Of a stretch of DNA of 64,000 bases, positions 11,248 through 30,049 are shown in pieces; the first letter of the stretch is position 1, and each line of letters starts with the position of its first letter. The position numbers and the translations under genes were made by a program. The DNA is taken from positions 370,014 through 434,013 of the forward strand of contig QPGA01000001.1 of assembly GCA_003332265.1 (NCBI GenBank), written 5' to 3'. The notes under the pieces were generated by a model. That model was not told the origin of the DNA, ran no database searches, and was given only the letters and a program-made list of their open reading frames with translations. This stretch comes from Candidatus Accumulibacter meliphilus. GTDB lineage: Bacteria > Pseudomonadota > Gammaproteobacteria > Burkholderiales > Rhodocyclaceae.

Positions 11248-11279
11248 GGTGTTTCTCCTTTGCGGTCAAAAATGAGAAT

Positions 11280-12560: not shown

Positions 12561-12571
12561 CTCAGGGCGGT

Positions 12572-13150
12572 CTACGCGGCGGCCTTGATGCCGAACATGC
12601 GCAGATGCATCTGGAGGTCGGCCACGCGGCGGTAGAATGTCGGCTTGGAGAGCCCTGAAGCCTTGCAGGCCATGGGCATGTCCTGATGCTCGGTCAGCAA
12701 CCCCAAAAGCACGCGTTGCTCGGCGTCCATCAGAGAGACGGCGTAGTCGAGATCCCGGGCCACGTGAATTTCGTCGTAGCCCCTGGGGGGCTCACCCCAC
12801 CGCGGCACCACTCTGTTCGCGTCGGCCAACACGTCGAGGCAATCGGAGTCGCACTCGTTCGCGGCGTCCTCCCCGGACGATCTGAAAAGCATGTGCTGGC
12901 GGTCGTGCACGATCGCGCTGGTCAGTTCTCCTGCGCGGTGCTGAGAAACCAGTCCGGTGAACGTTCCGGGTTGACCGCGGGATGCGTCGTAGCGGGACTC
13001 GCGCTCAAGCAGTTCAAGCAGGATGTCGTGCTCGACGTCCTGGCGTTCCTCTGCCGACAAGCCAATCTTGTGGGCCACACGCCAGGCATTAGCGCCAGCG
13101 GCTCGGGTCGCTGCGTTGAAGTAGCTCTTGGGGGAGTGGAGAGTCTGCAT
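12572..13150 (-). CDS. Sigma-70-like regulatory protein
   Basis: A 192-residue protein resembling small ECF-type sigma factors or phage sigma-like regulators. The N-terminal half has a region-2-like helix block (EERQDVEHDILLELLERE, then SRYDASRGQPGTFTGLV). The C-terminus has an HTH-like segment (MACKASGLSKPTFYRRVADL, about 160-180) comparable to sigma region 4. It is the first gene of the minus-strand early operon and probably controls it. ATG 13150 follows AAAGGACA; 25 further upstream codons are open but lack a site. Alternative: an HTH regulator without sigma activity. Confidence 0.6.
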   Translation of the reverse strand: MQTLHSPKSYFNAATRAAGANAWRVAHKIGLSAEERQDVEHDILLELLERESRYDASRGQPGTFTGLVSQHRAGELTSAIVHDRQHMLFRSSGEDAANECDSDCLDVLADANRVVPRWGEPPRGYDEIHVARDLDYAVSLMDAEQRVLLGLLTEHQDMPMACKASGLSKPTFYRRVADLQMHLRMFGIKAAA

Positions 13151-14300: not shown

Positions 14301-15531
14301 TCACGATCTGCCAGTGACGCAGCAGCCTGTCGCGCAATTCTCGCTCTTCACCACTCATGTTGCCGTTGGAACAACCATTGGGCGTAGTGATCAGGACAGA
14401 AAGCCCATGCGCTCGGCGTTCCACTTGCTTCGGGATACCGATCACGATTCTGACCTGCTTCACCTCGTACGGCGTCAGGTCAGAAATATTGAAATCGTCC
14501 TGCGCGACAGCCCAGATAGAACGCGGTTCGTTACGATGCAATCGGATGTCCAGGGCGTTGTAGGCCGCTTTCTTGGTGCTGTTGTCGCCACCGCCAACCT
14601 CATGCCGGCGCTCGACCTTGATCTGGGTTACCCGGATCGCACCGATGTTCTCGCCGTTGGCGGGGAACGCGCGTGGTTTCTTGAAGGACTCGAGATCGTA
14701 GTCCTCGAGTGGAATGGTCTCGCTCGTGAACTCGTGCATCATGATCGTGTCGGCGAAGGCGCGTGCGATATCCCGACGCATCCCGATACTCGGCGCATAG
14801 ACTTCGATCGCCCCCGAGGCCGGCTCGTAGGTCAGCCGGATCTTGTTACAAGGCACGAAATACCCTGTCTCGACTTGGCCGTTCCGGACGGTCTCGAAGC
14901 TGTTTGCCTCAGTATTCACGGCAGCCGAGAATTGGTAAAGCGTCACCTGCTCGGTCTCTTCCTCACCGTCATCGCTCTGGACAGAATAGCCACTTCGGGT
15001 GAAGTCGGAGATGGCGATCTCGTTCGGCTCAACATTCATCAGCCCTGCTATTTTCGAAGCAAATTGCTGCTTGCTCGCATCAGTCACAGTCAAAGCCAGA
15101 TCTCTTGGGCCTGAGAATGCGCTGTAGGTCTTCGGGCTAAGCCGGTGCTCGATCGCGTACCGGGCTTCTTCCGCGTAAACGAAGGCATCGTTTTTTTCCA
15201 GGTAGAGCCAGAGCATGCGCGCCATGCCATCGGGAAGATCCTCCTTGCCAGGGAATTCCAGGCCCTTGCCGAGGGAACGCACTGCCTCGTGGCCGCTCTG
15301 CTTGGCCATCAGATAGATACGCTCTGCCCGATCTTCCAGCTTTTTCCGAGTCTGGCCGATCACCGCGCCCATCGCCGCGACAATCGATTCGCGCACCTTA
15401 TCAATCGGCTGTGACCAGTCGATGGATTTTGAAGTCTGTTGATCACATCGCGCAACGTACCGCTCCAGCAGCGGCAGGTTCTCCTTTCTCGTTTTCCGAA
15501 CGAGTCGGGAGAAGTTCTCCATGTCTTTCAT
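14290..15531 (-). CDS. Unknown protein, first gene of a two-gene cassette (413 aa)
   Basis: Function not recognised. The 413-residue product has a helical N-terminal third (MENFSRLVRKTRKENLPLLE; VRESIVAAMGAVIGQTRKKL), then a mixed alpha/beta domain. That domain includes a DDGEEETEQ acidic patch and a C-terminal strand-rich region (EVKQVRIVIGIPKQVE; GLSVLITTPNG). No P-loop or obvious nuclease motif is seen. ATG 15531 is chosen because AAGGAG lies 10 bases upstream; ATGs at 15522 and 15555 are also in frame. Its 3' end overlaps the next gene by 11 bases. Together they form an isolated bicistron with its own terminator. Confidence 0.7.
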   Translation of the reverse strand: MKDMENFSRLVRKTRKENLPLLERYVARCDQQTSKSIDWSQPIDKVRESIVAAMGAVIGQTRKKLEDRAERIYLMAKQSGHEAVRSLGKGLEFPGKEDLPDGMARMLWLYLEKNDAFVYAEEARYAIEHRLSPKTYSAFSGPRDLALTVTDASKQQFASKIAGLMNVEPNEIAISDFTRSGYSVQSDDGEEETEQVTLYQFSAAVNTEANSFETVRNGQVETGYFVPCNKIRLTYEPASGAIEVYAPSIGMRRDIARAFADTIMMHEFTSETIPLEDYDLESFKKPRAFPANGENIGAIRVTQIKVERRHEVGGGDNSTKKAAYNALDIRLHRNEPRSIWAVAQDDFNISDLTPYEVKQVRIVIGIPKQVERRAHGLSVLITTPNGCSNGNMSGEERELRDRLLRHWQIVNVF

Positions 15532-15555
15532 GTTGTGGTAGCTCCTTGAACACAA

Positions 15556-16136: not shown

Positions 16137-16331
16137 ATGTCCAAGTCCCTTTCGATTCCACCTCGTGTGGCATGCCGACCAGCCGGCACCCCGGTGACTC
16201 CCCTGCGCGCCGTCGCCATGATTTTGGCGCACGGCGTTCTCCGCCTGCATGAGCGTCAAAAAGCCCTTGATAGCCGCACCGAACAGCGCGTTCATGACTC
16301 TGTTCTGAACCCCAAGGGAGACATTTCATGA
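16137..16331 (+). CDS. Small protein of recombinase cassette (64 aa)
   Basis: A 64-residue protein (starts MSKSLSIPPRVACRP) with a helical centre (VAMILAHGVLRLHERQKAL). The C-terminal motif EQRVHDSVLNPKGD resembles the leader in front of the first gene of the window. Its stop overlaps the DUF2924 start by 4 bases (ATGA), which strongly supports coding and operon membership. AAGGG lies about 6 bases before ATG 16137; an in-frame ATG at 16110 is the alternative. Role unknown; probably an accessory to the recombinase. Confidence 0.55.
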   Translation: MSKSLSIPPRVACRPAGTPVTPLRAVAMILAHGVLRLHERQKALDSRTEQRVHDSVLNPKGDIS

Positions 16332-16768
16332 CTGACGTACTGGCCCGGGTGGTGGCCCTCAGAACCACCCCGATCCCCGAACTGAAGCAACTTTGGCGGG
16401 ACCTGTTCGACACCGACCCGCCACCCTACAACCGCCGTTTCCTGGAAAACCGCCTGGCTTACCGCCTGCAGGAACTGGCCAATGGCGGATTGAAGACCAG
16501 CACCATCAAGCGTCTGGAAGTCCTGGGTGAGCAAGTCGATGGCGGCAAGGTGAAGATTCGCAGCCGCCGCGCTGACGACCGCCCGGTTGCCGGGACCAAG
16601 TTGATCCGAGAATGGCAGGGCACCCCCTACGAGGTCGTGGTGCAGCCTGACCACTTCGAGTTCCAGGGTCAGCGGTACCAGTCACTGTCGTCGATTGCCA
16701 AGGCGATCACCGGCACGATCTGGAATGGCTGGATGTTCTTCGGTCTGCGCGCCCGGAGGTCGGCATGA
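16328..16768 (+). CDS. DUF2924 protein
   Basis: A 146-residue DUF2924 protein, typically found directly upstream of serine recombinases in proteobacterial elements, as here. Recognisable parts are TPIPELKQLWRDLFDTDPPP, the YNRRFLENRLAYRLQELANGG-type helix block, and the C-terminal YEVVVQPDHFEFQGQRYQSL followed by SIAKAITG and NGWMFFGL. The C-terminal part resembles the RAMA-like fold used for DNA recognition. It overlaps the recombinase gene by 4 bases (ATGA). It probably assists recombinase targeting or directionality (inference). Confidence 0.85.
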   Translation: MTDVLARVVALRTTPIPELKQLWRDLFDTDPPPYNRRFLENRLAYRLQELANGGLKTSTIKRLEVLGEQVDGGKVKIRSRRADDRPVAGTKLIREWQGTPYEVVVQPDHFEFQGQRYQSLSSIAKAITGTIWNGWMFFGLRARRSA

Positions 16769-18099
16769 CCCCCACCCGGAAACTGCGCTGCGCCATCTAC
16801 ACCCGGAAATCCACCGAGGAAGGTCTCGACCAGGCCTATAACTCGCTGGATGCTCAGCGCGATTCCTGCGAAGCCTTTATTGCCTCGCAGAAGTCCGAAG
16901 GCTGGGTGGCATTGTCCGACGCTTATAACGATGGCGGGTACTCCGGCGGCACCCTCAACCGGCCGGGGGTTCAGAGGTTACTCGACGATGTCCGCGAAGG
17001 TCTGGTCGATGTGATTGTCGTCTATAAGATTGATCGTCTTTCTCGATCGCTGGCCGATTTCGCGAAACTGGTCGAACTGTTCGACGCGCAGAAGGTGACC
17101 TTCGTCTCCGTGACCCAATCGTTCAACACCACCACCAGCATGGGGCGGCTCACGCTGAACATCCTGCTATCGTTTGCTCAGTTTGAACGGGAACTTGGCG
17201 GGGAACGAGTCAGAGACAAGATTGCTGCCAGCCGCGCCAAGGGAATTTGGATGGGCGGCATGCCGCCGCTGGGCTACGATGTGGTTGAACGCAAGTTGAT
17301 ACCCAACCCCGCCGAGGCAGCACTGGTCAGGCGGATTTTTGAGCGCTTCATTGCCCTCGGATCAATGACCACCTTGTGCCGGGAACTGCGGGCCGAGGGC
17401 GTGACCACGAAATCCTGGACGACCCTCAAAGACAAGACCCGCGTCGGGAAGCTCATCGACAAAGGCTACCTCTACAAGATGTTCAAGAATCCCGTCTTTG
17501 TCGGCGTCGCTGCCTACAAGGGCAAGCACTTCGCCGGGGAGCACGAAGCAATCCTGGATCGGGCAGTGTGGGATCAGGTGCAGGCAATGTTGGGTCGCGG
17601 AGATCAAGAACAACGCGCTCGCCAGAATCGTCCATCGCGGGCTCCTGCCCTTTTGAAGGGCCTGATCTTCGCCGACGATGGCTGGGCCATGACGCCGGGC
17701 GCCACCAACAAGGGCGACAAGGTCTATCGCTACTACGTGAATACCGCTTCGATGAAGATCGGCAAGGACGCCTGCTCGATATCTCGTGTTCCCGCGGGAG
17801 AAGTGGAAGCCGCCGTCATTGCCCAGGTACGCAAAGTACTGCAGGCCCCCGAGGTGATGTCGCAGGCCATTCGCGAGGTGGTGGCGCTCGATCCGGCAGC
17901 AGACGCGCAGCAGGTCATTCTGACCCTGCAGTCAATCGAGCCAGTGTGGGATGAACTGTTCCCCGCTGAGCAGGCGCGGATTGTTCAACTGCTGGTGGAG
18001 CGAGTGACGGTCAGCCCCACCGGCCTGCGCATTGACATGAAGGCGGCGGGGATCAGGGAACTGATCCAGTCGGTGATGCCCGCGAGAAAGGCTGCGTGA
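16765..18099 (+). CDS. Large serine recombinase
   Basis: A 444-residue large serine recombinase/integrase. The N-terminal resolvase domain has the catalytic serine in YTRKSTEEG (S16), followed by YNSLDAQRDSCEAFI and the VVYKIDRLSRSLADF helix. The Recombinase domain starts near 165 (RAKGIWMGGMPPLGY). The segment where large serine recombinases carry a Cys4 zinc ribbon (LLKGLIFADDGWAMTPG ... IGKDACSIS) lacks the usual cysteines, and the protein is short for the family. It probably integrates or excises an element of this region. It is flanked by DUF2924 upstream and an HTH protein downstream, each overlapping by a few bases. Confidence 0.9.
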   Translation: MTPTRKLRCAIYTRKSTEEGLDQAYNSLDAQRDSCEAFIASQKSEGWVALSDAYNDGGYSGGTLNRPGVQRLLDDVREGLVDVIVVYKIDRLSRSLADFAKLVELFDAQKVTFVSVTQSFNTTTSMGRLTLNILLSFAQFERELGGERVRDKIAASRAKGIWMGGMPPLGYDVVERKLIPNPAEAALVRRIFERFIALGSMTTLCRELRAEGVTTKSWTTLKDKTRVGKLIDKGYLYKMFKNPVFVGVAAYKGKHFAGEHEAILDRAVWDQVQAMLGRGDQEQRARQNRPSRAPALLKGLIFADDGWAMTPGATNKGDKVYRYYVNTASMKIGKDACSISRVPAGEVEAAVIAQVRKVLQAPEVMSQAIREVVALDPAADAQQVILTLQSIEPVWDELFPAEQARIVQLLVERVTVSPTGLRIDMKAAGIRELIQSVMPARKAA

Positions 18100-18494
18100 T
18101 GACTGCTGATGTCATTTCTGTTGATCTGCCAATGACCTTCAAGAAGCGTGGTGGGCGCAAGGTGATCGTATTGCCGGATGGTACGCAGGGAAACCCGGCG
18201 CCGATGGCCACCATCGACAACACCATGATCAAGGCGATTGCGCGGGCATTTCGCTGGCAGAAGCTGCTGGAAAACGGCACCTACGGATGCCTGGACGAAA
18301 TCGCCAAGGCAGAACGCATCGGGCCATCGTTCGTGAGTCGCGTGATCAGATTGGCGCTGCTGGCACCAGACATCGTGGAGGCGGTCCTGGCGGGAAGACA
18401 GCCGGCGCATCTGGCGTTGAAGGATCTGATGCTGCCGTTTCCGGTGGAGTGGTCGGGGCAGAGGGAGAGGTTTAGGATGGGAGGTGGGGGATGA
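18099..18494 (+). CDS. HTH protein of recombinase cassette
   Basis: A 131-residue basic protein that regularly follows this type of recombinase. A helix-turn-helix-like segment lies at about 60-90 (LDEIAKAERIGPSFVSRVIR), followed by LLAPDIVEAVLAGRQPAHL and the family-typical end LMLPFPVEWSGQRERF. It resembles the ParB/KorB HTH. ATG 18099 overlaps the recombinase stop by one base (TGATG); GTG 18096 is an alternative. Probably a DNA-binding accessory or regulator of recombination. Confidence 0.75.
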   Translation: MTADVISVDLPMTFKKRGGRKVIVLPDGTQGNPAPMATIDNTMIKAIARAFRWQKLLENGTYGCLDEIAKAERIGPSFVSRVIRLALLAPDIVEAVLAGRQPAHLALKDLMLPFPVEWSGQRERFRMGGGG

Positions 18495-18665
18495 TCCTGC
18501 GTTGGCACCGGATCCAACTCAAGAGACGGAGTGATGCCAGACCGGCACCTGTTACAATCGCACGACTGCCGAAGCTAGGTGCCGTCGAACAAGGTTTTTG
18601 CCGATGGACCGGGCGCTGACGGCCTAGCAGCTAAACGCTGTTCCTAATACGTCGTAGGAGTGCCC

Positions 18666-19634
18666 GTGAGTGCCAACTGTCCCATTTGCGGATCGTCCGT
18701 CATTTCCTCTGAACCAAGCCCAGATGGAAGCGACCTCACGGAATATAGCTGCCCGAGATGTGGCGATTTCAAGCTCAGCGGTAGTCTGGTCTCGACACTC
18801 CCGCATCTGCACTCAACAGATCCGGACGCCCCAGCCAAGCTCAGCCATACGATTCGGCGCTCCCAAGAGAGAGATAGGCCAGTATTGCTCAATACGTACA
18901 TGGCCGAGGCATCGTTGAAGCACCCGCTGCCGCGGCCGCGTGAACAGGCTGACCTCCTGGTTCGTTGGCTTGCCCAGAACGTACCCGGACCAGGCGAAAC
19001 CGTATGGGTTGAGTTCAGCACTCACGGATCGATCATCGGAGCAAAGAGCAAAGCAGGATTCGGGCTCGTCCTTGATCACCTCTTTTCGGCTGGCCTGGTT
19101 ACCGGCAATCAGCCGAAGGCTTTCCAAGGTGGTGACCAGGCGTACGCCACTCTGACTTTCGAAGGATGGGAGCACTACGAGCACTTGCGGCAAGGTGGCG
19201 CGGTCTATCGGAAGGCCTTCATGGCGATGAAGTTCGGAGACGAGAACCTAAGTATTGTGCTTGAGAAAGTCTTCAAGCCCAGCGCAAGACGCGCGGGGTT
19301 CGACTTGGTCAAACTGGATGACGTACCGAAGGCTGGGCTCATTGACGACCGTCTGCGCGTAGAGATTCAAGTCTCGGACTTTGTCGTTGCAGATCTCACC
19401 CATGACAATCTGGGTGCTTACTGGGAAGCAGGCTATGCCGAGGGGCTTGGGAAGCCTGTCATCTATACCTGCGAGAAGAGCAAGTTCGCGACCGCCAAGA
19501 CCCACTTTGACACGAATCACCACCTGACCATATTGTGGGACTTCGCGGCACCCGAAGCCGCGGGCAACGAACTCGTGGCGACAATCCGCGCAACGCTTCC
19601 GCATTTGGCAAGCCTCGTCGACGGCAACGCCTAA
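18666..19634 (+). CDS. Zn-ribbon protein with nucleoside-deoxyribosyltransferase-like domain
   Basis: A 322-residue two-domain protein. The N-terminal zinc ribbon uses C5, C8, C29 and C32 (NCPICGS ... SCPRCGDF). A helical middle follows. From about 180 comes a Rossmann-like domain: AFMAMKFGDENL, then SDFVVADLTHDNLGAYWEAG and GLGKPVIYTC. The pattern D-x-x-x-ADLT...E-x-G-A...GKPVI is that of nucleoside 2-deoxyribosyltransferase/TIR-like nucleotide-cleaving folds, with the glutamate of WEAG near 253 the likely catalytic residue. GTG 18666 is preferred, with AGGAG 5 bases upstream; GTG 18660 is the alternative. It lies 303 bases upstream of the helicase-methylase-ATPase operon on the same strand. 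Possible nucleotide-targeting defence effector (inference). Confidence 0.7.
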   Translation: MSANCPICGSSVISSEPSPDGSDLTEYSCPRCGDFKLSGSLVSTLPHLHSTDPDAPAKLSHTIRRSQERDRPVLLNTYMAEASLKHPLPRPREQADLLVRWLAQNVPGPGETVWVEFSTHGSIIGAKSKAGFGLVLDHLFSAGLVTGNQPKAFQGGDQAYATLTFEGWEHYEHLRQGGAVYRKAFMAMKFGDENLSIVLEKVFKPSARRAGFDLVKLDDVPKAGLIDDRLRVEIQVSDFVVADLTHDNLGAYWEAGYAEGLGKPVIYTCEKSKFATAKTHFDTNHHLTILWDFAAPEAAGNELVATIRATLPHLASLVDGNA

Positions 19635-19937: not shown

Positions 19938-22900
19938 ATGACGAAAACACTCAACCAAACCTGCACCCCCCGCGCCTCCGTTCTCGACGGCACTGCCGAT
20001 TTCGTTGTTAACTTGGCGGACCTACCATCGCTCAGTGAGGCCGACGCAACGGAATTCCTTGATTCCAACGTCCTGACCTCTGGCATGGAGATACTCCTGT
20101 CGCAGGCGTTTGCCCGCCTGGCCGGCACGGGAAGTTCCAGCGGCATCTACAAACTGTCCGAATCGATGGGCGGCGGTAAGACGCAGAGCATGATCGTCGC
20201 CGGCATCTTGGCGCGATTTCCTCAACTCGCCAAACTCATGGCCTTCCGTGACCCGCTGGCCAATGCCAAGCCGGACGTGGTCGCCGCCTTTACCGGCCGC
20301 GCCACCGATAAAAAGGTCTGGGTTGCCATCGGCGATGCCCTTGGTGTCACCTTCGCCCCGGATCGCGCCCCGTCGGAAACTGAATGGCGCGACGCGCTCA
20401 AAGACCGTGCCGCGCTGATTTTGCTCGACGAACTGGCCTTCTACCTTGTCCATGCCGCCAGCCAGGGCAGCAAGGAAGACGGCACCCGCGCCGCCACGCT
20501 GGCCGGCATTGCATTGACCAATCTGTTCGGCGCCGTGCGCGATTACAAGGAATGCCGCCGCTGCGTCATCGTCATCGCCGACCTGCAAAAGGACTGGGAA
20601 CAGGGCGCCGAAGAGTTGGCCCGCATCATGCGTTCAAACGACACGCTGGGCGGCACCATGCAGAGCGTAAACAACGAAATGTCCAAGGGCGCGCAGACCA
20701 TTGCCCCTGTGGATAACAGCAAGGACGAGCTATACGCCATCTTGCGGCGCCGACTGTTCAAGACGCAGGATGCCAGCGCCAAGGATATCGAGGCTGTCGC
20801 CGACGCCTACGTGGCCGAACTGAAGAAGGCCAGCGCCATCATCGAGCGCCCGACCATGAAGGTGCGCGAGGAAATCCTTGTTTCCTACCCCTTCCACTTT
20901 TCCACCAAACACCTGATTGCTTCGTTCAACGACAACCCCGGCTTCCAGAAAACCCGTGATGTCATCCGGCTCGTGGCCACCATCGTGCGCAGCCTGTGGG
21001 GCAAGGGCGATGCCGAAGTCGCCAAGCACTACTTGCTGGCGTTGGACACCTCCGACCTCAACGACGCCAACGTCGCCAGCCGTTTTGTTGAAATCAAGAA
21101 GTCCCTTCAGGACGCGATGCAGACCGACATCGCCAACAGCGGCACCTCGCACGCCGAGACGCTGGATGCCGAAACTGACGGGCTGGCCAGCTTGTGCGCT
21201 AAATGGATACTGTCCGCATCCCTGTCCGAGATCCATCCGCGCGGTCTTACCGATGCTGAATTGGCGGAATACCTGCTGGCGCCGGGGCGCACCATCCTCG
21301 GCCTTCAGGATGCCCTGAAAAAGCTCTACGACACCTGCTGGTACATCGAGCAGACCAAATCCGGGCGCTACCTATTCAACCGCCACAAGAACCTCAACGC
21401 GCAGGTCAACAGCTATACCAAGGTCTGCACCAATGAAGACCGTGACACCAAGATCGAGGCCAAGCTGGCAGAAATGTTCGAGCCAAAAGACAAGCGCTGC
21501 TATCAAAAGCTCGCGGTGCTGCCCGGTCTCGATCAACTTCAGCTTGAGCGAGAAAAGTCCACGCTGGTCATCCTCAAGCCCGATACCGATTTCCAGAAGT
21601 TTTTCGCCGGGCAGAAATTCAAGAACCGCGTCGCCTTCCTCACGGCGGTCGATCAAACCGGCATCTTCAACGTCAACAAGAAAGCGCAGCGCCTCTGGGC
21701 CATCAGCCAGGTGGTCAAGGACCTCACGCCCGACGACAGCCAGTACAAGAAAGCCAAGGACACCGAGGCCGAGTATCAGACGGAGTTGTTCCTGGCCATC
21801 AAGGCCGTGTTCAACAAGTTCCACTACCCGCTGATCGATGAAGAACAGGAAACCGCGCTGATTGGCGCGCCGCTGCTGGATGGCTATGTTGACCAGAAAA
21901 CCGGCCACCATGTGAAATACCGCAATGAAGACGCCTCCAAAGGTGAATTCGTGGTCGAAGCCACCCTGCGTGAGGCCAACAAATTTCAGGTCTTCAATCC
22001 GGGGTCTGGCGACGACAAGCTCAAGGTCTATCAACCCCTGCGCAATCGCGTCGAATCTTTCCTCTTTCCGCCGACCGGCCGCACCACCTGGGATCAAATC
22101 AAGGACGGTGCCGCCAGTCGTGGCCATGTCCTGTGGACCGAACCCGGCACGCTGGAGCGCATGCGCGAAGTGCTGATTACCTCCGGCGCCTGGCGCGAGG
22201 ATGCCGGGCAGATTCAGAAGCCGCCCTTCGACGAGATCACCGGTGTCAGCATCGAGTACGCCCGCGACAAAGATTCTGGCGTCATCACCACCACCGACAT
22301 AAACTTGGTGCACGCCGACAAGCTATTTGTGCGCGAGGACGCCGCCGAATACCGCGTTCATCCAAGCGATCAAGCGTTGGTGTCTGGCGCCATGTTGATC
22401 GAGTTCAAGGCGGTGGACTCCAGCGGCAAGAACAAGGAAGGCAAACCCTACCGCATCGAAAACAGCATCGACCTCGCCCATGATTTTGTCCCGTCGCCCA
22501 ATGCCGGGCATCAGGTCGTCAAGGTCAAGGTTGTGCCACCCGAGAGCACCCTGCTGTACTCGCTGGATGGCTCCAACCCCGCCAACAACGGCAAGCCCTA
22601 TGCCAAACCCGGCATCGAAGCGCCGGAAGGCAGCACAGTGCGCCTGCACGCCGCCAAGGGGGGCGTGGTGCGCGACATTTCGATCACCGTGCCCAAACCC
22701 CAGAGCGGCGGTGGCGGTTCTGGCGGCACAGGCCCGGCCATCAACCCGGACATCCCCGCCAGCGTGAACGGCACGGCCTTCGCCCACCTGGTGACCCGTT
22801 CGGCCACCTACCACTTGTTGGGCAGTCTACCGGCCGATGCGCGCCTGCAAATGGTGCAGGTCAAGAGCACCGTCGCCGCCACCGACACCACCGTCACCAT

Positions 22901-23090
22901 GACCTGGGACAGCAAAACCCAGCTCGCCCCGCAGGCCGTCATGGAAGCCTTCGAGTTTCTCGACAAGCAGGTTGAAGGCGGCGAATGGTCGCTGCGTTTC
23001 AAGCACCTTCACTTCGCCACCGGCAAGTCGCTGCTGCAATGGCAGGTTGATACCAGCAGCAAGATCGAGCTGTCGCAGGTGTCGCAATGA
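19938..23090 (+). CDS. DUF499 AAA+-like ATPase (defence, Hma-type)
   Basis: A 1050-residue DUF499 ATPase, first gene of a four-gene operon. Walker A is ESMGGGKTQSM (GGGKT at 78-82) and Walker B is ALILLDELAFYLV near 155-165. A long helical region follows. The C-terminal third has a glycine-rich linker (PQSGGGGSGGTGPA) and a final domain from about 940. DUF499 proteins are recurrently found in defence islands with DUF1156 methylases and helicases. PADLOC work described this helicase-methylase-ATPase combination as a putative defence system (Hma). The ATPase probably powers DNA sensing or translocation. It overlaps the DUF3780 gene by 4 bases (ATGA). Confidence 0.88.
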   Translation: MTKTLNQTCTPRASVLDGTADFVVNLADLPSLSEADATEFLDSNVLTSGMEILLSQAFARLAGTGSSSGIYKLSESMGGGKTQSMIVAGILARFPQLAKLMAFRDPLANAKPDVVAAFTGRATDKKVWVAIGDALGVTFAPDRAPSETEWRDALKDRAALILLDELAFYLVHAASQGSKEDGTRAATLAGIALTNLFGAVRDYKECRRCVIVIADLQKDWEQGAEELARIMRSNDTLGGTMQSVNNEMSKGAQTIAPVDNSKDELYAILRRRLFKTQDASAKDIEAVADAYVAELKKASAIIERPTMKVREEILVSYPFHFSTKHLIASFNDNPGFQKTRDVIRLVATIVRSLWGKGDAEVAKHYLLALDTSDLNDANVASRFVEIKKSLQDAMQTDIANSGTSHAETLDAETDGLASLCAKWILSASLSEIHPRGLTDAELAEYLLAPGRTILGLQDALKKLYDTCWYIEQTKSGRYLFNRHKNLNAQVNSYTKVCTNEDRDTKIEAKLAEMFEPKDKRCYQKLAVLPGLDQLQLEREKSTLVILKPDTDFQKFFAGQKFKNRVAFLTAVDQTGIFNVNKKAQRLWAISQVVKDLTPDDSQYKKAKDTEAEYQTELFLAIKAVFNKFHYPLIDEEQETALIGAPLLDGYVDQKTGHHVKYRNEDASKGEFVVEATLREANKFQVFNPGSGDDKLKVYQPLRNRVESFLFPPTGRTTWDQIKDGAASRGHVLWTEPGTLERMREVLITSGAWREDAGQIQKPPFDEITGVSIEYARDKDSGVITTTDINLVHADKLFVREDAAEYRVHPSDQALVSGAMLIEFKAVDSSGKNKEGKPYRIENSIDLAHDFVPSPNAGHQVVKVKVVPPESTLLYSLDGSNPANNGKPYAKPGIEAPEGSTVRLHAAKGGVVRDISITVPKPQSGGGGSGGTGPAINPDIPASVNGTAFAHLVTRSATYHLLGSLPADARLQMVQVKSTVAATDTTVTMTWDSKTQLAPQAVMEAFEFLDKQVEGGEWSLRFKHLHFATGKSLLQWQVDTSSKIELSQVSQ

Positions 23091-23779
23091 ACGAGCCGCA
23101 CGATGCCAACGTGAGCATCGGGGCCGAGTTGCACGACTTCGGCATCGTCGCCGAGCACGGCGACTGCTTCGAGTTTCTGATCGACGGCAGCGCCGGCGCC
23201 AGTTGCCTGCTGGTTTCCGTGGTGCAAACCGAGCGCGGGCCGCGTCGCACCGAACTGGCCGAAATTTCCGGCGCCACCTGGCGCAAGATCAGCGCCCGCG
23301 CCGTGCGCGAACTGGCGCAGGACATGAACGCCGACGAACTGGAGGGCAAGAAGGCCCCCAGCCTCAAGACCGGTACCAACCGTCTCAGCCCGCTGGTCGG
23401 CCGCGAATTGGCCCTGCTGCTGTGGGCCTTGCAAGAAGAAGGAGCGCCGGAACAAATCGAAGCCATCCTGCACGGCTGGCGCGAACTGGCGCGCGAAGAA
23501 CGCTGGTGGCTCTACGCAAAAGCTGCTGCCCACGGCCAGCAAATCGGCTTCGGCTGGCGTCGTGCGCTATTCCACGCCCTGTCCGAATCCACCGAATCGC
23601 GTGCAGCCCCGCCGCCGGCTGAAAAAAAAAGCCCGAAGCGAACGAGTTCGCCGCGCTCCTCAGCCAGCACTCGCCTGAAGGCAACGCCGCCGCCCCCGGC
23701 AGCAATGCCGCCGCAAACCCCGCCCCGCCCCGCCGCAAGAAAAAGAAAGACAGCGGCAGTGGCAATGACCCTCAAATAG
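23087..23779 (+). CDS. DUF3780 protein, apparently frameshifted at a nine-A run
   Basis: DUF3780 accessory protein of the DUF499/DUF1156 operon; the readable frame gives 230 residues. The N-terminal 180 residues look intact (HDFGIVAEHGDCFEFLIDGS; ATWRKISARAVRELAQDMN; REERWWLYAKAAA). At 23622-23630 there are nine A residues. Beyond them the current frame becomes a Pro/Arg/Ser-rich tail of unusual composition. Adding one A gives a natural C-terminus (KPEANEFAALLSQHSPEG, later ending DPQIDLF) that stops at 23790, one base before the methylase ATG. So either a one-base deletion, a sequencing error, or slippage on the A tract. The start overlaps the DUF499 stop by 4 bases. Confidence 0.8.
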   Translation: MNEPHDANVSIGAELHDFGIVAEHGDCFEFLIDGSAGASCLLVSVVQTERGPRRTELAEISGATWRKISARAVRELAQDMNADELEGKKAPSLKTGTNRLSPLVGRELALLLWALQEEGAPEQIEAILHGWRELAREERWWLYAKAAAHGQQIGFGWRRALFHALSESTESRAAPPPAEKKSPKRTSSPRSSASTRLKATPPPPAAMPPQTPPRPAARKRKTAAVAMTLK

Positions 23780-23791
23780 ACCTCTTCTGAC

Positions 23792-26788
23792 ATGACCGCT
23801 GCCCAAGCCACCAAGACCTTCATCGAAGTCCAGTTCCCCATTGGCCCGCTGTCGCTGGAGAGCTACATCGAGCGCGACGCCAAGGGCGCGAAGGCGCTCT
23901 CCTCGCTGGGCAAGTGGTGGGGCTCCAAGCCGCTGGTGCTGACCCGCGCCATCATCCTCGGCACTGTGTTTCCGGCCTCGGAAGACCCCGAACGCTGGCC
24001 CGACGACCTCGCCATCTTCCTGCGCTGCATGACGTTCGATAACGCCGGCATGTGGAAGCGCAAAACCGAAGCCCTGCCTGCCAAGCTGTGCTACCCGATG
24101 GCAACGGCCTCCGAAAAGGCCGATTTGTTCCAGGATTCCGAGCGCTGGATTCGCGGCGCAGATCGTGAGCAAAAGTCGGCGCTGGAGAGACGGCGGTTTT
24201 ATGCGCTGGACTATGTCGAGCAGCGTGAATACTGCTGCCGCGTCGAACAAATCGACGGCCCGCCGGAAGAATCTTGGGCGGAAATCAACGCCTATCTCGG
24301 CACCACGGCTCAAACGCTGCCGGAACTGATCGAGCAGCTTTCAATTCGTCGCTACGGCAAGCGCCTCAAGGTCGGAGACGCCTTTTCTGGCATGGGGTCA
24401 ATCCCGTTTGAAGCGGCTGAGCTGGGTTGCGATGTGTATGCCTCCGACCTCAACCCGGTTGCCTGTCTGCTGACCTGGGGTGCACTCAATCTGGTGGGAG
24501 GCACGGACGAATTCCGCGCCACGGTCCATGCCGAGCAGAAGCGCATTTACGACGAGGTCGACGTCTGGATACTGGAAAAGGGCTTCGAGACCAGCGAGGA
24601 AGGTTGGCGTGCTGAAGCCTATCTTTACTGCATCGAAATGACCGTGCCGGAATGGGATGGTTGGACGATTCCGGTTTGCCCGAGTTGGGTTATTGCGCCC
24701 AAGGTCGAGACTTGGGTGGAATTAGTGCCGATCGAGTCCGAAAAGCGTTTTGGCTTCAAGGTTCGCAAGGGCGGTAAAGGTTATGCGCTCGCGGATGAGG
24801 GTACGAAGCAAAGCGGCGACATCGTATGCCCGCCGCCACTTTGGGAAATATTTAAGAAACAGGGGCGCCACCAGCAGATGCAACGCACCTTGCCCTACAA
24901 CCAATTAATAGAAAATGCCGGGGGGCTGCGGCGCTGGGAAAGCGCCGACATCGTTCCGCGAGCCGGCGATGTATTACAAGAGCGTCTCTTCTGCATTCGC
25001 TGGCGTGAGCCCGACTGGACTGACGAGCGCGGTCGCGAACGGCGCGGTGAAATGGTTTACCGTGAGCCTCGTGCTCATGACCTAGATACTGAGCAGACCA
25101 TTTTGGACACATTAAAGGAAGAATTTTCCGCCTGGCAAACAGTTGGATGGATACCTAGCTGGCGGATCGAACCTGGCCAAGAAACGACACGACTGACCCG
25201 AGAAAAAGGCTGGACCCATTGGCATCACCTCTATACGCCGCGACAGTTGTTGATGGCCGGCGAGTATTCCCGAAGAGTTGGCGGCTGCGAACCTTTAGTC
25301 CGAGCGGCCCTTGCACTGAACCTAGGCCGCCTCTCTGATACTAATGGTCGTTTATGCCGATGGAAAGTTTCACAGGGAGGTGGAATTGGTGGGTCAGTCA
25401 CAGTGTTTTACAACATGGCGCTCAATACCTTTCCAAATTACACGGGCCGTGGTTTGACTGGTCTTGCTCCTCAACTTCAGCAAGAACATGGACGCTATAT
25501 CTGCCAGAGCGAAAAGACAACTGCACTTGCCGACGCTCGTTTGGTTTCGGAAAACTGTCAAGTCTGGATAACAGATCCACCCTATGCAGATGCTGTGAAC
25601 TACGAGGAGTTGTCCGAATACTTTCTGGCTTGGTACGTGCCGCATCTTAAGGCGGCATTTCCGAATTGGTATGCTGACTCTATGCGCAATCGCGCGGTGA
25701 AGGGAGACGATGCTCCTTTCCGTGTGGCAATGGCCGAGTGCTACCGCAATCTCACGCAGCACATGCCGGACGATGGCTTACAGGTGCTGATGTTCACGCA
25801 CAAGTCCACCGACGTATGGGAGGACCTAGCGCTCATCATGTGGTCGGCAGGCTTGCAGGTGAAGCAGGTTTGGAGTGTGGCGACTGAAACGCCAGGGGTT
25901 GGGACGCGCACAGGTAACTACGTCCAAGCTACCTATAACATGGTGCTGCGCAAACGCACCGGGGACAAGTGCGGCTTTGTTGATTTCATCACGCCCCAAG
26001 TCAACAAGCGGGTCACGGAAGTCATCACCCGCATGCGCGAGAGTCAAATCGACGCGGGGTTGGCGCGCTGCGGCTACACCGACACCGACTACCTGCTGGC
26101 CGCCCAGGCCGCTGCTGCCGAAGTGGTGACGGGTTACGCTACCATCGACGGTGTCGATCTGGATGCCGAGCTGCGCACGCCGAACAATGAACGCGGCCGC
26201 TCTGCGCTGCGCACCTTGATGGAAAACGCCAAACGCACGGCCACCGATTTTCTGCTGCCACCGGCGATGGACCGCGCCATCAAGAAAGTCGGCGGTGGTG
26301 ATGCCTACCAGTTCTGGCGGCAGTTCTGCGCCGAAGAGAAATTCCTGCTCAAGGGGCTGGAAGGTGAAGCGCAAGGCGTCTTCAAGCTGGGGGCGTTCCA
26401 GGACTTGGGGCGCGCCTATGGCTTGGTGGATTACGAAAGCTTGCTCGGCCCGACCCGCGCCAACGATACCCGCACCTCGCTGCCGGAAGAATTGCCCCGC
26501 CCGGAAGCCCTGCGCTTCGATGAGGTGCCCTCGTCGGACCGTAGCCTGTGGCGCTATTCGCCAACCCGCCACATTTACCACGCACTCAAGCTGCTGGCCG
26601 ATGGCGCGGACGCGGAACGCGCCGTTAAACATCTGGTGGATAGCACCGACTTCTGGAACCTGCGCACGACCCGACTAGCGGCGATCCTCGGCTATTTGCA
26701 GGAAACCACGGCGCACCTGCCGCACTGGGCACCGTATCAGGAGGCGCTGACGCAACTGGCGATTGGCGTTGAGCATCATCGCGGTTAA
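23792..26788 (+). CDS. DUF1156 DNA methyltransferase (Hma-type)
   Basis: A 998-residue DNA methylase. The DUF1156 N-terminus reads FIEVQFPIGPLSLESYIERD, followed by LGKWWGSKPLVLTRA. The SAM motif is DAFSGMGSIPFEAAELG (from about 196) with SDLNPVACLL, and the catalytic motif is ITDPPYADAVNYEEL (DPPY at about 595-598). DPPY suggests N6-adenine methylation. About 400 residues separate the two motifs, enough for a target-recognition region. DNA from roughly 24,630 to 25,970 is noticeably less GC-rich than both ends of the gene, which suggests recombination of the central segment. Presumably it marks self DNA for the ATPase and helicase encoded beside it. Confidence 0.9.
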   Translation: MTAAQATKTFIEVQFPIGPLSLESYIERDAKGAKALSSLGKWWGSKPLVLTRAIILGTVFPASEDPERWPDDLAIFLRCMTFDNAGMWKRKTEALPAKLCYPMATASEKADLFQDSERWIRGADREQKSALERRRFYALDYVEQREYCCRVEQIDGPPEESWAEINAYLGTTAQTLPELIEQLSIRRYGKRLKVGDAFSGMGSIPFEAAELGCDVYASDLNPVACLLTWGALNLVGGTDEFRATVHAEQKRIYDEVDVWILEKGFETSEEGWRAEAYLYCIEMTVPEWDGWTIPVCPSWVIAPKVETWVELVPIESEKRFGFKVRKGGKGYALADEGTKQSGDIVCPPPLWEIFKKQGRHQQMQRTLPYNQLIENAGGLRRWESADIVPRAGDVLQERLFCIRWREPDWTDERGRERRGEMVYREPRAHDLDTEQTILDTLKEEFSAWQTVGWIPSWRIEPGQETTRLTREKGWTHWHHLYTPRQLLMAGEYSRRVGGCEPLVRAALALNLGRLSDTNGRLCRWKVSQGGGIGGSVTVFYNMALNTFPNYTGRGLTGLAPQLQQEHGRYICQSEKTTALADARLVSENCQVWITDPPYADAVNYEELSEYFLAWYVPHLKAAFPNWYADSMRNRAVKGDDAPFRVAMAECYRNLTQHMPDDGLQVLMFTHKSTDVWEDLALIMWSAGLQVKQVWSVATETPGVGTRTGNYVQATYNMVLRKRTGDKCGFVDFITPQVNKRVTEVITRMRESQIDAGLARCGYTDTDYLLAAQAAAAEVVTGYATIDGVDLDAELRTPNNERGRSALRTLMENAKRTATDFLLPPAMDRAIKKVGGGDAYQFWRQFCAEEKFLLKGLEGEAQGVFKLGAFQDLGRAYGLVDYESLLGPTRANDTRTSLPEELPRPEALRFDEVPSSDRSLWRYSPTRHIYHALKLLADGADAERAVKHLVDSTDFWNLRTTRLAAILGYLQETTAHLPHWAPYQEALTQLAIGVEHHRG

Positions 26789-26803
26789 GCGTTTCGTGCC
26801 CTG

Positions 26804-29545
26804 ATGCTCAACCGTCACAGCTCACGCCGCGCCAGCCTCTACGAGACCTTCCTCAAGCCTCGCCTGGCAGGCGCGCAGCGCTACGACCGCATCGCCGGCT
26901 ATTTTCAGAGCAGCTTGCTGGAACTGGCGAGTGAGTCGCTGGCCGACATTCCGCGCATTCGCATCGTCTGCAACACCGAGGTCAGCGCCGAGGATGTAAA
27001 AACGGTGCGCATGGCCACAGGCGCTCGTCGCAAGGAACTGGAGGAAGGTCTGCTACGTCTGGCGTGGAATGCCGGCCATTTTCCGCATCTGGTGGACGTG
27101 CATGGCATACCCGCCCAGACGCGCCTGAATGTGCTGCACGACCTGCTGATGGCCTCCGGCAAGGAGGGCCGTCTGTTCGAGATTCGTCTGGTGCCGGATT
27201 CCGAGTTCGGCTTTGTGCACGGCAAGGGCGGCATTGTCGAAGGCGACTGGGGCAAGACCTCGTTCATCGGCAGCGCCAACGATAGCGCCCGCGCCTGGAC
27301 CAAGAATTACGAGCTGGTCTGGGAGGATGACACGCCCGAAAGCGTGGCATGGGTGCAAGAGGAATTCGACGCCCTGTGGGACAAGGGGTTTCCGCTTTCC
27401 GAATTCATCGTCAAACAGATCGGCCGCTTGTCGCAGCGCACCGTCATCGAGCATGTCGGCCCGTGGAAAGAGAAGCCTACGCCGGCGCCGTTGCTGGCGG
27501 AGGTGCCGACGGCGACGGAGCTTTTTGGCTTTTGGGACCACCAGAAATACTTTATCAACCTCGCATTTCAAGAGCATCTGAAATACCGCGAGGATGCGCA
27601 GCGCGGCGCGCGCTTTCTGCTGTGCGATGGCGTTGGCCTGGGCAAGACGCTGCAACTGGGAGCGTTGGCCAAGTTGATTGGCACGCTGGACAGCCTGCCG
27701 ATTCTAATCATGGCGCCCAAGCCCTTGCTGGCGCAGTGGCAGGAAGAGCTGCTGCAAAAGCTGGCGATTCCCTCCGCTCGCTGGGAGGGTGGCGGCTGGC
27801 TGACGGAGCGCGATGAGTTCCACCCGGCGCTGCCTGGCAAGGCGACCAATTGCCCGCGCAAGATTGGCATCGTTTCGACGTCGGTGGTCACCAGTGCGCC
27901 GCTGTCGGCCCGCAACAGTGCGCTGGTCGAGCAATTGCTGGAAAAGCGTTTTTCCTGCGTGATCTGGGACGAGGCGCACAAGATTCGACGCGGCAATCTG
28001 TCGGTGAACAACGTCTATTCGCCGCCTGAGAAAAAACGACTGTACAAGTTTGCCGAGGCACTGGCAGCGCGCGCGAAGACGCTCTTGCTGGCCACCGCTA
28101 CGCCGGTACAACTCCACTCGATGGAGCTATGGGACTTGCTGTACATCCTGTCGATGAACAATCCGCAGGTGCTGGGCAGCCCGAACAGTCTGTGGCGCAA
28201 GGTGGATGGCCCCGAGGTGTTCGACATCCTGGCCGGGCGCAAGGAAATCGAGGGCTACGGGGAGAAATGGCGCTACTGGCGCGACCCCATGCCGTCACCG
28301 CTCGATGCCAAAGCCCATGCCTTTGAGTGGGTGCGTCAGGACCTAGGGCTGTCCAGTACCGATAGCCAAGCGTCCGACGCCGATCAGGATACCGTCGATG
28401 ATGCACGCAAATTCGACTTGGAATTCCTGCCGCTGCGCGAGGTAAATCCCTTCACGCAGTGGGTGGTGAAGCGCTCGCGCGACCGGCTGGAGGCCGAGGG
28501 CAAACTGGTCAAGATTGAGATGGTGCCGCACGGCGATGGCCATCCGATTCTATGCTCGCACAGCATGGGGCAAGCCTTCGAGCTGGCCGAAGACTTTGCC
28601 AAGGCGCTGCACCATCGGGTAAAGGCAGGGGGTTTCATCAAGACATTGCTTCAGCGTCGCGTCGGCAGTTCCCTCGAAGCAGGACTGCGGACAGCGGAAA
28701 AGATGCTTGCCGGCAAACAGCTGGATGATGACGACGACCCCGACGAGGAAGGCGGCTCAATTTACCCGCTCATGGCCGAAGAGAAGGCTTTACTGCAACG
28801 CTTGCGTGATCATCTGGCCAACCACTTGGGGCGCGAAGATGACCCGAAGTTCGAGCGGCTTCGTCATGTGCTGGGTTTGGAATTCGACGGGCAGAAGTGG
28901 ATCGAGCGCGGAGTGCTGATCTTCAGCCAGTTCTACGACTCCGCTTACGCGCTAGCCGAATTCCTGGTCAAGCATTTTGACGAGCCCATCGGTCTCTATT
29001 CAAGCACCAGTTCCAGCAAGCTGTTCGAGGCTGGCCGGGTCCAGAGTGTGGATCGGGAGTTGCTCAAGGAAAAGGTGACGCAGGGTCGCTTGAAGTTGCT
29101 GATCGGCACCGACGCCGCCAGCACAGGCCTCAACCTGCAACGCTTGGGCTGCCTCATCAACCTCGATCTGCCGTGGAACCCGACGATCCTTGAACAGCGC
29201 AAGGGGCGGGTGCAACGCGGCACGCTGGCCAAGCGCATTCCTTTTTACAACATGCGCTACGACAAAGGGGCCGAGCAGAGACTCTTCGACACGCTTTCCG
29301 GCCGGATTCAGGAAATTACTTCCATCTTCGGCACGGTTCCAGACTTCATTGTCGATCAGTGGGTCGCCGACATGCTGGAAAACAAGGCGTGGAATCAGAA
29401 CACCGTTCTGACCATTATTGCCGAGCGTCGAGAGAATCCGTTCACCTTGAAGGAAACGACCGAATCACTCGATGCCGACTGGGAGGCTACGGCGGAGGTG
29501 CTGAACCAGACGGAGGCATTCAGGGAACTGGCTTCCGGCTGGTAG
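26804..29545 (+). CDS. PLD-domain SNF2-family helicase (Hma-type)
   Basis: A 913-residue fusion. The N-terminal phospholipase-D-like domain has the HxK signature in FVHGKGG (H139, K141) followed by SFIGSANDSARAW. Only one HxK motif is visible, so dimerisation may be needed for catalysis. The SNF2/SF2 helicase core follows: CDGVGLGKT (about 275-283), VIWDEAHK near 385-392, and the C-terminal motor IGTDAASTGLNLQ with EQRKGRVQRGT. It is expected to translocate on DNA and possibly nick or process it. ATG 26804 lies 15 bases after the methylase stop. It is the last gene of the operon, about 410 bases from the tRNA gene. Confidence 0.9.
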   Translation: MLNRHSSRRASLYETFLKPRLAGAQRYDRIAGYFQSSLLELASESLADIPRIRIVCNTEVSAEDVKTVRMATGARRKELEEGLLRLAWNAGHFPHLVDVHGIPAQTRLNVLHDLLMASGKEGRLFEIRLVPDSEFGFVHGKGGIVEGDWGKTSFIGSANDSARAWTKNYELVWEDDTPESVAWVQEEFDALWDKGFPLSEFIVKQIGRLSQRTVIEHVGPWKEKPTPAPLLAEVPTATELFGFWDHQKYFINLAFQEHLKYREDAQRGARFLLCDGVGLGKTLQLGALAKLIGTLDSLPILIMAPKPLLAQWQEELLQKLAIPSARWEGGGWLTERDEFHPALPGKATNCPRKIGIVSTSVVTSAPLSARNSALVEQLLEKRFSCVIWDEAHKIRRGNLSVNNVYSPPEKKRLYKFAEALAARAKTLLLATATPVQLHSMELWDLLYILSMNNPQVLGSPNSLWRKVDGPEVFDILAGRKEIEGYGEKWRYWRDPMPSPLDAKAHAFEWVRQDLGLSSTDSQASDADQDTVDDARKFDLEFLPLREVNPFTQWVVKRSRDRLEAEGKLVKIEMVPHGDGHPILCSHSMGQAFELAEDFAKALHHRVKAGGFIKTLLQRRVGSSLEAGLRTAEKMLAGKQLDDDDDPDEEGGSIYPLMAEEKALLQRLRDHLANHLGREDDPKFERLRHVLGLEFDGQKWIERGVLIFSQFYDSAYALAEFLVKHFDEPIGLYSSTSSSKLFEAGRVQSVDRELLKEKVTQGRLKLLIGTDAASTGLNLQRLGCLINLDLPWNPTILEQRKGRVQRGTLAKRIPFYNMRYDKGAEQRLFDTLSGRIQEITSIFGTVPDFIVDQWVADMLENKAWNQNTVLTIIAERRENPFTLKETTESLDADWEATAEVLNQTEAFRELASGW

Positions 29546-29888
29546 CTTGTGGAACGGCCGCACACGGGAGGGCACCAAGCGCGGTGGCGATTCCTGGTCT
29601 TTCGGCGGATGTACAACGATGTCGCTTTCTTGTGCAGCGAATGGGTACAGGAGAAGCATCGTCCATCACCAACCAGAAATTTCGCGATGGCGTACCTCTC
29701 GAAACCAAAGCATACACCATCACAAAACCCGCCAGGAGCACTCTAAAACTCAATCTAAAACAACGACTTGCAAAAAACCGTACCAAATTTGCGAAGTCAC
29801 GAGGTTTCGAGAGAAACGGCCCGTAAGACGCCAAAATTGGTCAGAAATGACGTTTGGGCGAAAACGAGGTCAACAGGTATAAACGAAA
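29546..29888. other. Non-coding junction between defence operon and tRNA-Ser
   Basis: About 340 bases with no supported gene. The right part is AT-richer than the flanks. Open frames here have no ribosome-binding site and no recognisable family. It is probably the boundary of the accessory region, with element-end or recombination debris. Confidence 0.4.
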
Positions 29889-29955: not shown

Positions 29956-30049
29956 TGGCGGAGACGAAGGGATTCGAACCCTTGATGCAGGTTTATGCCC
30001 GCATGCTCCCTTAGCAGGGGAGTGCCTTCGACCTCTCGGCCACGTCTCC
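29956..30049 (-). tRNA. tRNA-Ser (anticodon GCU)
   Basis: A complete 94-base class II tRNA read on the minus strand. The acceptor GGAGACG (5' end at 30049) pairs with CGTCTCC before an encoded GCCA end. The anticodon loop is CTGCTAA with anticodon GCT, there is a long variable arm, and the T-loop is GGTTCGAATCC. The first base coincides with the last base of the lysC stop codon, so the two are probably co-transcribed. It marks the border between accessory DNA (left, at the tRNA 3' side) and core genes (right), the usual arrangement at a tRNA integration site. Confidence 0.95.

What the first reader, a model, noticed from the sequence alone, without database searches (positions are those of the whole stretch)
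19938..29545. Four-gene helicase-methylase-ATPase (Hma-type) defence operon
A DUF499 ATPase, DUF3780 protein, DUF1156 methylase and PLD-SNF2 helicase are arranged with 1-16 base gaps or overlaps. Walker, DPPY and HKG/DEAH motifs are visible. The set matches the predicted Hma system described with PADLOC, which as far as I know is poorly characterised mechanistically. It sits next to a tRNA gene beside a recombinase cassette, as defence islands do.
Basis: partly seen in the sequence, partly recalled or inferred. Interest (0 to 1): 0.78.

Follow-up and report, generated by a model that had tools for sequence, protein, structure and literature searches.

The report
Divergent BREX-related restriction-modification operon
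Four adjacent bacterial genes look like a complete anti-virus machine of a recently named kind (BREX-related type 2), in a consistently altered form whose DNA-recognising part seems to change independently of its other parts.

Summary
They are not Hma as published (three genes); PADLOC Hma models match weakly, while a separate PADLOC set matches far better. The set is what Rakesh and Krishnan (2026) call a Type-2 BREX-related (BR) system, here a divergent branch: ten operons, from four named phyla and a viral contig, form one clade sharing altered helicase motifs I, V and VI (10 of 10; 0 of 17 others). In the two closest informative pairs, three subunits stay at 82-91% identity while the methylase recognition region is 52-54%. 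I infer that the methylase sets specificity for the whole complex. The operon is cargo between a serine-recombinase cassette and tRNA-Ser; two relatives have the same cassette with other cargo, and type I R-M or Dnd-like genes occupy the site in two. DUF7680 takes DUF3780's place in another DUF499 branch; common descent is unproven. Defence and methylation are inferred, not tested. New variant of a known kind.

The parts
19938..23090 (+). DUF499 AAA+ ATPase (BrxC-like), 1050 aa
   Evidence: Pfam DUF499 54.1 bits; PADLOC DUF499 439 bits over residues 3-1050; weak FnIII-type match CHB_HEX_C_1 at 858-909, 19.8 bits, below its cut-off of 22
20169..20183 (+). Walker A GGGKT of the DUF499 ATPase; Walker B-like LILLDE follows at 20415-20432
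   Evidence: 9 of 9 aligned operons
23087..23779 (+). DUF3780 protein, 230 aa, with a proline- and lysine/arginine-rich variable tail
   Evidence: Pfam DUF3780 88.5 bits over residues 51-187; also DUF7680 26.8 bits, cut-off 24; tail variable in the alignment
23792..26788 (+). DUF1156 adenine methyltransferase, 998 aa
   Evidence: PADLOC DUF1156_MTase 737 bits; Pfam DUF1156 48.2 bits
24497..25561 (+). Variable region of the methylase (residues 236-590), between motif I/II and DPPY; taken as the target recognition insert
   Evidence: Less alike than both methylase flanks in 45 of 45 pairs of operons; placement after core strand 2 as described for BR methylases in PMC12839542 (passages)
25574..25585 (+). 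DPPY motif (residues 595-598)
   Evidence: 9 of 9 aligned operons
26804..29545 (+). PLD (HKD-like) nuclease domain fused to SNF2 helicase, 913 aa
   Evidence: PADLOC PLD_Helicase 634 bits over residues 2-913; PLDc_2, SNF2-rel_dom, Helicase_C
27218..27280 (+). PLD motif HGK...GSAN (residues 139-159)
   Evidence: HxK and GSxN in 27 of 27 helicases aligned; aspartate at the HKD position in only 3 of 27
27629..27649 (+). Helicase motif I GVGLGKT; motif II DEAH at 27968-27979
29108..29218 (+). Helicase motif V TDAASTGLNLQ (29108-29140) and shortened motif VI QRKGRVQR-G (29195-29218): marks of the clade
   Evidence: 10 of 10 clade members, 0 of 17 others
16328..18494 (+). DUF2924, large serine recombinase and a third small gene: recombinase cassette of the island
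   Evidence: Pfam and PHROGs; same cassette with other cargo in 2 of 15 flanks fetched from the genus
29668..29686 (+). Junction sequence at the tRNA-side end of the cargo
   Evidence: Found with up to 3 mismatches in 6 of 15 flanks; once in the window and once in the genome; its role as attachment site is inferred
29956..30049 (-). tRNA-Ser(GCT), its 3' end facing the operon
   Evidence: ARAGORN

Best explanation
It is a complete restriction-modification-like anti-phage operon of the DUF499-centred Type-2 BR kind, in a divergent motor variant. The DUF1156 methylase would methylate adenine at a site chosen by its inserted recognition region and so mark the host genome. The DUF499 ATPase would assemble the subunits on DNA. 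Where the site is unmethylated, the SNF2 motor with its PLD nuclease head would be engaged and cut or block the incoming DNA. DUF3780 would be an adaptor or a reader of the mark. Because the recognition region changes while the other three subunits hardly do, the nuclease most likely takes its specificity from the methylase, as in BREX with PglX. Shown here: genes, families, kept catalytic motifs, conserved order, clade, block-wise divergence. Inferred: enzyme activities, the role of each subunit, the order of events, phage resistance.
For: Family matches and kept motifs. Same four-gene order in 8 of 8 complete genome relatives and in a viral contig. The ten-member clade has 100/100 support in a tree of 20 helicases. 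Methylase residues 236-590 against its C-terminal part, DUF499 and helicase: 53.8% against 89.4, 89.4 and 90.8% for window/L002; 52.2% against 92.5, 90.6 and 89.3% for L009/L068. In both pairs the lowest 250-residue block of all four proteins is methylase 340-590. The same tRNA site holds type I R-M genes in L039 and DndC-like and DndD/PbeC-like genes in L041. An RM-like function of Type-2 BR systems is predicted in print (PMC12839542 section 30).
Against: No experiment on this operon; the literature searches listed none on a Type-2 BR system (listings and some passages seen, not whole papers). The HKD aspartate position is D in only 3 of 27 helicases, E in the window, so nuclease activity is not assured. 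The motif I, V and VI changes could weaken the motor. The methylase N-terminal part is also lower in both close pairs (78.6 and 71.7%), so the changing unit may be larger than the recognition region, and fast divergence instead of exchange is not excluded. In window/L006, L007/L009 and L007/L068 the lowest 250-residue block lies over DUF3780 or its tail, not the recognition region. No structure could be predicted.
Confidence: 0.62

Rival explanations
1. It is an Hma system with an extra DUF3780 gene.
For: Same three core kinds of protein; weak HmaA, HmaB and HmaC matches; Hma is discussed as a name for DUF499-centred BR systems in PMC12839542 (passages).
Against: The dedicated PADLOC set beats the Hma models by 349 to 665 bits for the three shared proteins. 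The nuclease is an N-terminal PLD domain, not the C-terminal REase given for Type-1 BR helicases. Control: the ATPase and methylase of L054 and L055 do score best with HmaC and HmaB, so the models discriminate.
Confidence: 0.08
2. The methylase only protects, and the nuclease acts without reading the methylase's site, for instance on DNA ends, stalled forks or foreign structures sensed by DUF499; the variable region then merely follows which site is marked.
For: The nuclease subunit is nearly unchanged when the recognition region changes, which also suits a nuclease that does not read sequence. The DUF499 C-terminal part is a proposed sensor in PMC12839542 (passages) and is the less alike part of DUF499 in the window comparisons.
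Against: A mark would still have to be read by something to spare the host, and BREX, the nearest studied relative, restricts DNA that bears the unmethylated motif (start of the abstract of PMC11341690 as listed).
Confidence: 0.2
3. The clade's altered motor is no longer an active helicase; the operon acts as a methylation and binding system that blocks phage DNA without cutting, or is regulatory.
For: Motif I, V and VI changes in 10 of 10; HKD aspartate missing in most helicases aligned.
Against: Walker lysine, DEAH and the motif VI arginines, HxK and GSxN are kept in 10 of 10, over four named phyla, which speaks for selection on activity.
Confidence: 0.1

Closest known systems
Type-2 BR (BREX-related) system, Rakesh and Krishnan 2026, PMC12839542
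   Same: DUF499 ATPase, standalone DUF3780, DUF1156 adenine methylase with an inserted recognition region, HKD/PLD-SNF2 helicase.
   Different: Separate clade; helicase motifs I, V and VI altered in 10 of 10 members; C-x4-C knuckle of the recognition region absent in 10 of 10 but present in 10 of 12 others with that stretch; the DUF3780 model is matched only from position 44 on.
NCBIfam 'anti-phage-associated' set NF042961-NF042964
   Same: All four proteins match the four models, three of them nearly end to end.
   Different: All four lie below the curated cut-offs (568 of 1200, 85 of 200, 982 of 1000, 970 of 1100 bits), as do all four of L009; the canonical L058 passes two of four.
Hma (Payne et al. 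2021, PMC8565338)
   Same: Helicase, methylase and ATPase of the same broad kinds.
   Different: Hma has three genes and matches other models better; no DUF3780 in its definition as seen.
BREX, PglX/BrxC
   Same: AAA+ ATPase of BrxC kind and adenine methylase as specificity factor, by analogy (PMC12839542 and PMC13326643, passages).
   Different: No PglZ found among the genes scanned; SNF2-PLD nuclease instead.
DUF499-DUF7680 operons (L054, L055)
   Same: Same order of ATPase, small protein, methylase and SNF2 helicase with a weak PLD match.
   Different: ATPase and methylase nearer to HmaC and HmaB; small protein is DUF7680; extra genes between methylase and helicase.

Membership tests
Type-2 BR | DUF499 ATPase in the core operon | tested here: met
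   Pfam 54.1 bits, cut-off 23; PADLOC 439 bits
Type-2 BR | Standalone DUF3780 gene in the locus | tested here: met
   Pfam 88.5 bits, cut-off 27
Type-2 BR | DUF1156 adenine methylase with recognition insert in the core | tested here: met
   Pfam 48.2 bits; motif I and DPPY with a long variable stretch between them
Type-2 BR | Helicase with N-terminal HKD nuclease in place of TUDOR | tested here: met
   PLDc_2 at residues 52-192, SNF2 and Helicase_C behind it; aspartate of HKD is E in the window
Type-2 BR | C-terminal RRM, in 53% of taxa preceded by two FnIII-like domains, in DUF499 | tested here: inconclusive
   Only a weak FnIII-type match below its cut-off; structure prediction failed and was then switched off
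Type-2 BR | Zinc finger in the recognition insert (given for Type-3 BREX and as usual in BR methylases) | tested here: not met
   C-x4-C pair absent in 10 of 10 clade methylases, present in 10 of 12 others with the stretch. PMC12839542 does not give it as a defining feature of Type-2 in the passages seen
Hma | Three-gene operon best matched by HmaA, HmaB and HmaC | tested here: not met
   Hma models 72-96 bits against 439-737 for the other set
BREX | PglZ beside ATPase and methylase | tested here: not met
   No PglZ match among the four genes and the neighbours given to PADLOC, Pfam and NCBIfam; chosen ORFs, not every ORF of the window
DISARM | DrmA, DrmB and further Drm genes | tested here: not met
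   Only helicase-motor matches to DrmD (128 bits, cut-off 610)
Anti-phage system in general | Reduces phage infection | not testable with these tools
   Needs plating assays

The most novel reading that the evidence does not exclude
This clade is a distinct subtype of DUF499 defence with a rewired SNF2 motor, in which one exchangeable methylase directs both marking and cutting, so that new specificities arise by changing a single protein; and its DUF3780 subunit links DUF3780 with DUF7680, making that small subunit a wider part of DUF499 systems and not a Type-2 speciality.
Probability: 0.3. Interest if true: 0.62.

Novelty: new variant of a known kind. Interest (0 to 1): 0.45.

Why it matters
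The parent type was described in 2026 from sequence analysis, and the library searches listed no experiment on it. The close pairs window/L002 and L009/L068 are natural experiments: nearly the same complex with different recognition regions. They make it directly testable whether the methylase guides the nuclease in DUF499 systems. The shared motor changes pose a question about how SNF2 motors couple ATP use to movement, and DUF7680 points to a possible unrecognised subunit in related systems.

Tried and rejected
Hma and DISARM membership were considered and rejected.

Attachment sites: the 3' end of tRNA-Ser has no second copy on the + strand of the window, and the junction sequence occurs once in the window and once in the genome, so no second attachment half was found.

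The gene at 18660-19634 as a fifth subunit: not kept. Among 70 loci held it matched only one distant paralogue in the same genome, and it ends 303 bases before the operon.

Promoters and terminators: counts do not exceed shuffles (3 against 2.9; 14 against 12.3), so nothing is claimed.

DUF3780 and DUF7680 by profile comparison: weak in all three tries (E 0.075, 0.5 and 0.014; probability at most 3.2%). As a positive control the clade's DUF3780 against canonical DUF3780 gave E 3e-22.

Phage collection: no DUF3780 match, helicase matched only in part in 6 records. Solved structures: none for the methylase, only chance-level ones for DUF499, weak RapA-type matches for the helicase. A search for a PADLOC label as possible name of this set led nowhere.

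Rows left out: L010 and L011 are fragments and were not in the block comparisons; L017, L020 and L059 do not cover the knuckle stretch. The 9 cargo proteins given to PADLOC were chosen by me from 4 of the 15 flanks. 8 of the 15 flanks are shorter than 10 kb because of contig ends, so cassette counts are lower bounds. Plasmid helicases: 7 of the 20 listed hits, of 418 records, were aligned. The DUF3780 profiles used 9, 6 and 11 proteins. An earlier count said seven other genomes of the genus have DUF3780; the right count is six.

Full report
What is there. Four genes on the + strand, 19938-29545, encode proteins of 1050, 230, 998 and 913 aa, with a 4-base overlap and gaps of 12 and 15 bases. 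Pfam identifies DUF499, DUF3780, DUF1156 and PLDc_2 plus SNF2 and Helicase_C domains, all over the curated cut-offs. An open stretch of 1050 codons compares with at most 361 in 50 shuffles.

Which system. PADLOC holds two candidate sets. One (DUF499, DUF3780, DUF1156_MTase, PLD_Helicase) matches at 439, 78, 737 and 634 bits, nearly end to end except for DUF3780 (residues 60-181 of 230). The other, HmaC, HmaB and HmaA, matches at 90, 72 and 96 bits over parts. Published Hma has three genes (PMC8565338, passages). Rakesh and Krishnan 2026 (PMC12839542) describe DUF499-centred BREX-related systems; of that paper I saw the abstract, outline, passages, section 30 and two of four parts of the reference list. 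They set Type-2 apart by a standalone DUF3780 and an N-terminal HKD nuclease on the helicase, and predict an RM-like mode. That fits this operon. NCBIfam has four matching 'anti-phage-associated' models, but the window's proteins fall below all four cut-offs, as do all four of L009, while the canonical L058 passes two of four.

A clade of its own. A scan of genome contigs with the helicase gave 10 loci; 8 hold the whole operon in the same order and 2 are fragments. By record title and tree label the 8 come from Pseudomonadota, Thermodesulfobacteriota, Bdellovibrionota and Verrucomicrobiota; most are metagenome-assembled, and I do not trust the title Klebsiella pneumoniae of the fragment L011. 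A viral contig, L068, adds a tenth operon counting the window. In a tree of 20 helicases the ten form one side of a branch with 100/100 support. Among 28 genomes of the window's genus, 7 including its own have DUF3780, and one more of 33 from family and order; the stretches compared of those others are 21-48% identical to the window's proteins. In the class, 9 of 369 genomes have a helicase match at E up to 1e-60, the window's included, the rest at 37-45% identity.

What sets the clade apart. Helicase motif I reads DGVGLGKT in 10 of 10, against D[E/Q]VG[L/V]GKT in 17 of 17 others; motif V TGLNLQ against EGLNLQ; motif VI QRKGRVQR followed directly by G, one residue shorter and without the [I/F/L]GQ tail of the others. 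The 17 others are 8 from the class search, 2 from DUF7680 loci and 7 of the 20 plasmid hits listed. Walker lysine, DEAH and the motif VI arginines are kept in the clade. HxK and GSxN are kept in 27 of 27, but the aspartate of HKD is present in only 3 of 27. The methylase lacks the C-x4-C knuckle found in 10 of 12 other methylases that cover the stretch. That these changes are shared over several phyla suggests a working variant and not decay; this is an inference.

Where specificity seems to lie. I compared all 45 pairs of the ten operons. Methylase residues 236-590 are less alike than both methylase flanks in 45 of 45 pairs, and less than DUF499 and the helicase in 44 of 45. For window/L002 the values are 53.8% (block), 89.4% (C-terminal part), 89.4% (DUF499), 81.9% (DUF3780 core; 73.3% over its whole length) and 90.8% (helicase); for L009/L068 they are 52.2, 92.5, 90.6, 88.0 and 89.3%. 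In both pairs the lowest 250-residue block of all four proteins is methylase 340-590. Three other pairs were tested in that way (window/L006, L007/L009, L007/L068), and there the lowest block lies over DUF3780 or its tail. The pair L006/L008 is alike throughout (97.7% in the block). The methylase N-terminal part is also lower in the two close pairs (78.6 and 71.7%), so the changing unit may be residues 1-590. The return to high identity at DPPY suits replacement, though fast divergence is not excluded. L004 carries about 103 extra residues in the block. If recognition can change without the nuclease changing, then either the nuclease takes its specificity from the methylase or it does not read sequence. 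I favour the first, by analogy with BREX, where PglX is called the specificity factor (title and start of abstract of PMC11341690, listing).

Setting. The tRNA-Ser/lysC place was found in 26 of 28 genomes of the genus. Of 15 flanks fetched, homology to the window resumes between 29663 and 29680 in six, and the junction ACCAACCAGAAATTTCGCG is found with up to 3 mismatches in six (five of the same plus L043). In the others homology resumes nearer the tRNA. G015 and G016 have the recombinase cassette (85% and 81%) with other cargo between it and the tRNA. PADLOC, run on 9 proteins that I chose from four flanks, finds type I R-M subunits in L039, DndC-like and DndD/PbeC-like proteins in L041, a helicase nearest to ZorD in L037 and nothing for the large protein of L032 at E up to 1e-8. 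So the site holds defence cargo in at least some relatives. To the left, 1-12.8 kb carries primase, helicase, DUF669 and Sak4-like genes, shared with G015 on the same contig as its tRNA site and at several places in G016. The operon therefore seems to ride on a larger phage-like or plasmid-like element whose far end I did not find.

DUF3780 and DUF7680. The window's DUF3780 also matches Pfam DUF7680 (26.8 bits, cut-off 24). Searches of 369 and 398 genomes (drawn from overlapping groups) gave six further genomes with DUF7680. In 6 of 6 a DUF499 gene, a DUF1156-type methylase gene or both lie within about 2 kb, as far as contigs reach. In L054 and L055 the order is DUF499, DUF7680, methylase, further genes, SNF2 helicase with a PLD match below its cut-off; ATPase and methylase are nearest to HmaC and HmaB, the helicase nearest to PLD_Helicase. 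Profile comparison gives only E 0.014 to 0.5. So equivalent position is shown and common descent is not. DUF7680 is not in the main text of PMC12839542 nor in any held paper; supplements were not readable.

Embedded genes. Between methylase and helicase, 5 of the 11 other loci of the clade (L003, L004, L010, L011, L068) carry extra ORFs, which by eye look like UPF0175 and PIN pairs, a PIN gene, a Schlafen-like gene and others (names recalled, not scanned). The window has none there. Genes embedded in Hma loci have been tested as defence genes by others (PMC12111858 and PMC12988326, one passage each).

Verdict. A real, complete and probably working defence operon of a type published in 2026, in a divergent branch that I did not find set apart in what I saw of that paper. 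Defence function, methylation and mechanism are inferred.

Noticed in passing
window 18660-19634 +: Protein with a zinc-ribbon-like start and a weak nucleoside 2-deoxyribosyltransferase-like end (22.6 bits, cut-off 28.8), just upstream of the operon; a 28.6% paralogue lies in the same genome (L070:5724-6665). Possibly another conflict gene.
   Followed up: partly
window 1-12812: Phage- or plasmid-like replication genes: two DNA methylases with weak ParB_N matches, Prim-Pol/PriCT-2/DUF3987 primase, ResIII helicase, DUF669, Sak4-like protein; related stretches in G015 and at several places in G016.
   Followed up: partly
window 13347-15555 -: Two-gene pair (317 and 421 aa) without a Pfam match; the larger matches phrog_37634 of unknown function.
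   Followed up: no
L054:6246-18999 and L055:6347-19501: DUF499-DUF7680-methylase-SNF2 operons that mix Hma-like ATPase and methylase with a PLD_Helicase-like motor and a small protein in DUF3780's place.
   Followed up: partly
L068 (IMGVR_UViG_3300037107_000172): A viral contig carries the whole clade operon; some other ORFs look like phage structural genes by eye only.
   Followed up: partly
L003, L004, L010, L011, L068, between methylase and helicase: Extra toxin-like or other ORFs are embedded at this point in relatives, none in the window.
   Followed up: partly
L032:2321-6613 - (G015, same tRNA site): A 1430-aa protein with a P-loop-like start and no PADLOC match at E up to 1e-8 occupies the same site in the nearest relative by this locus; possibly an undescribed defence gene.
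   Followed up: no
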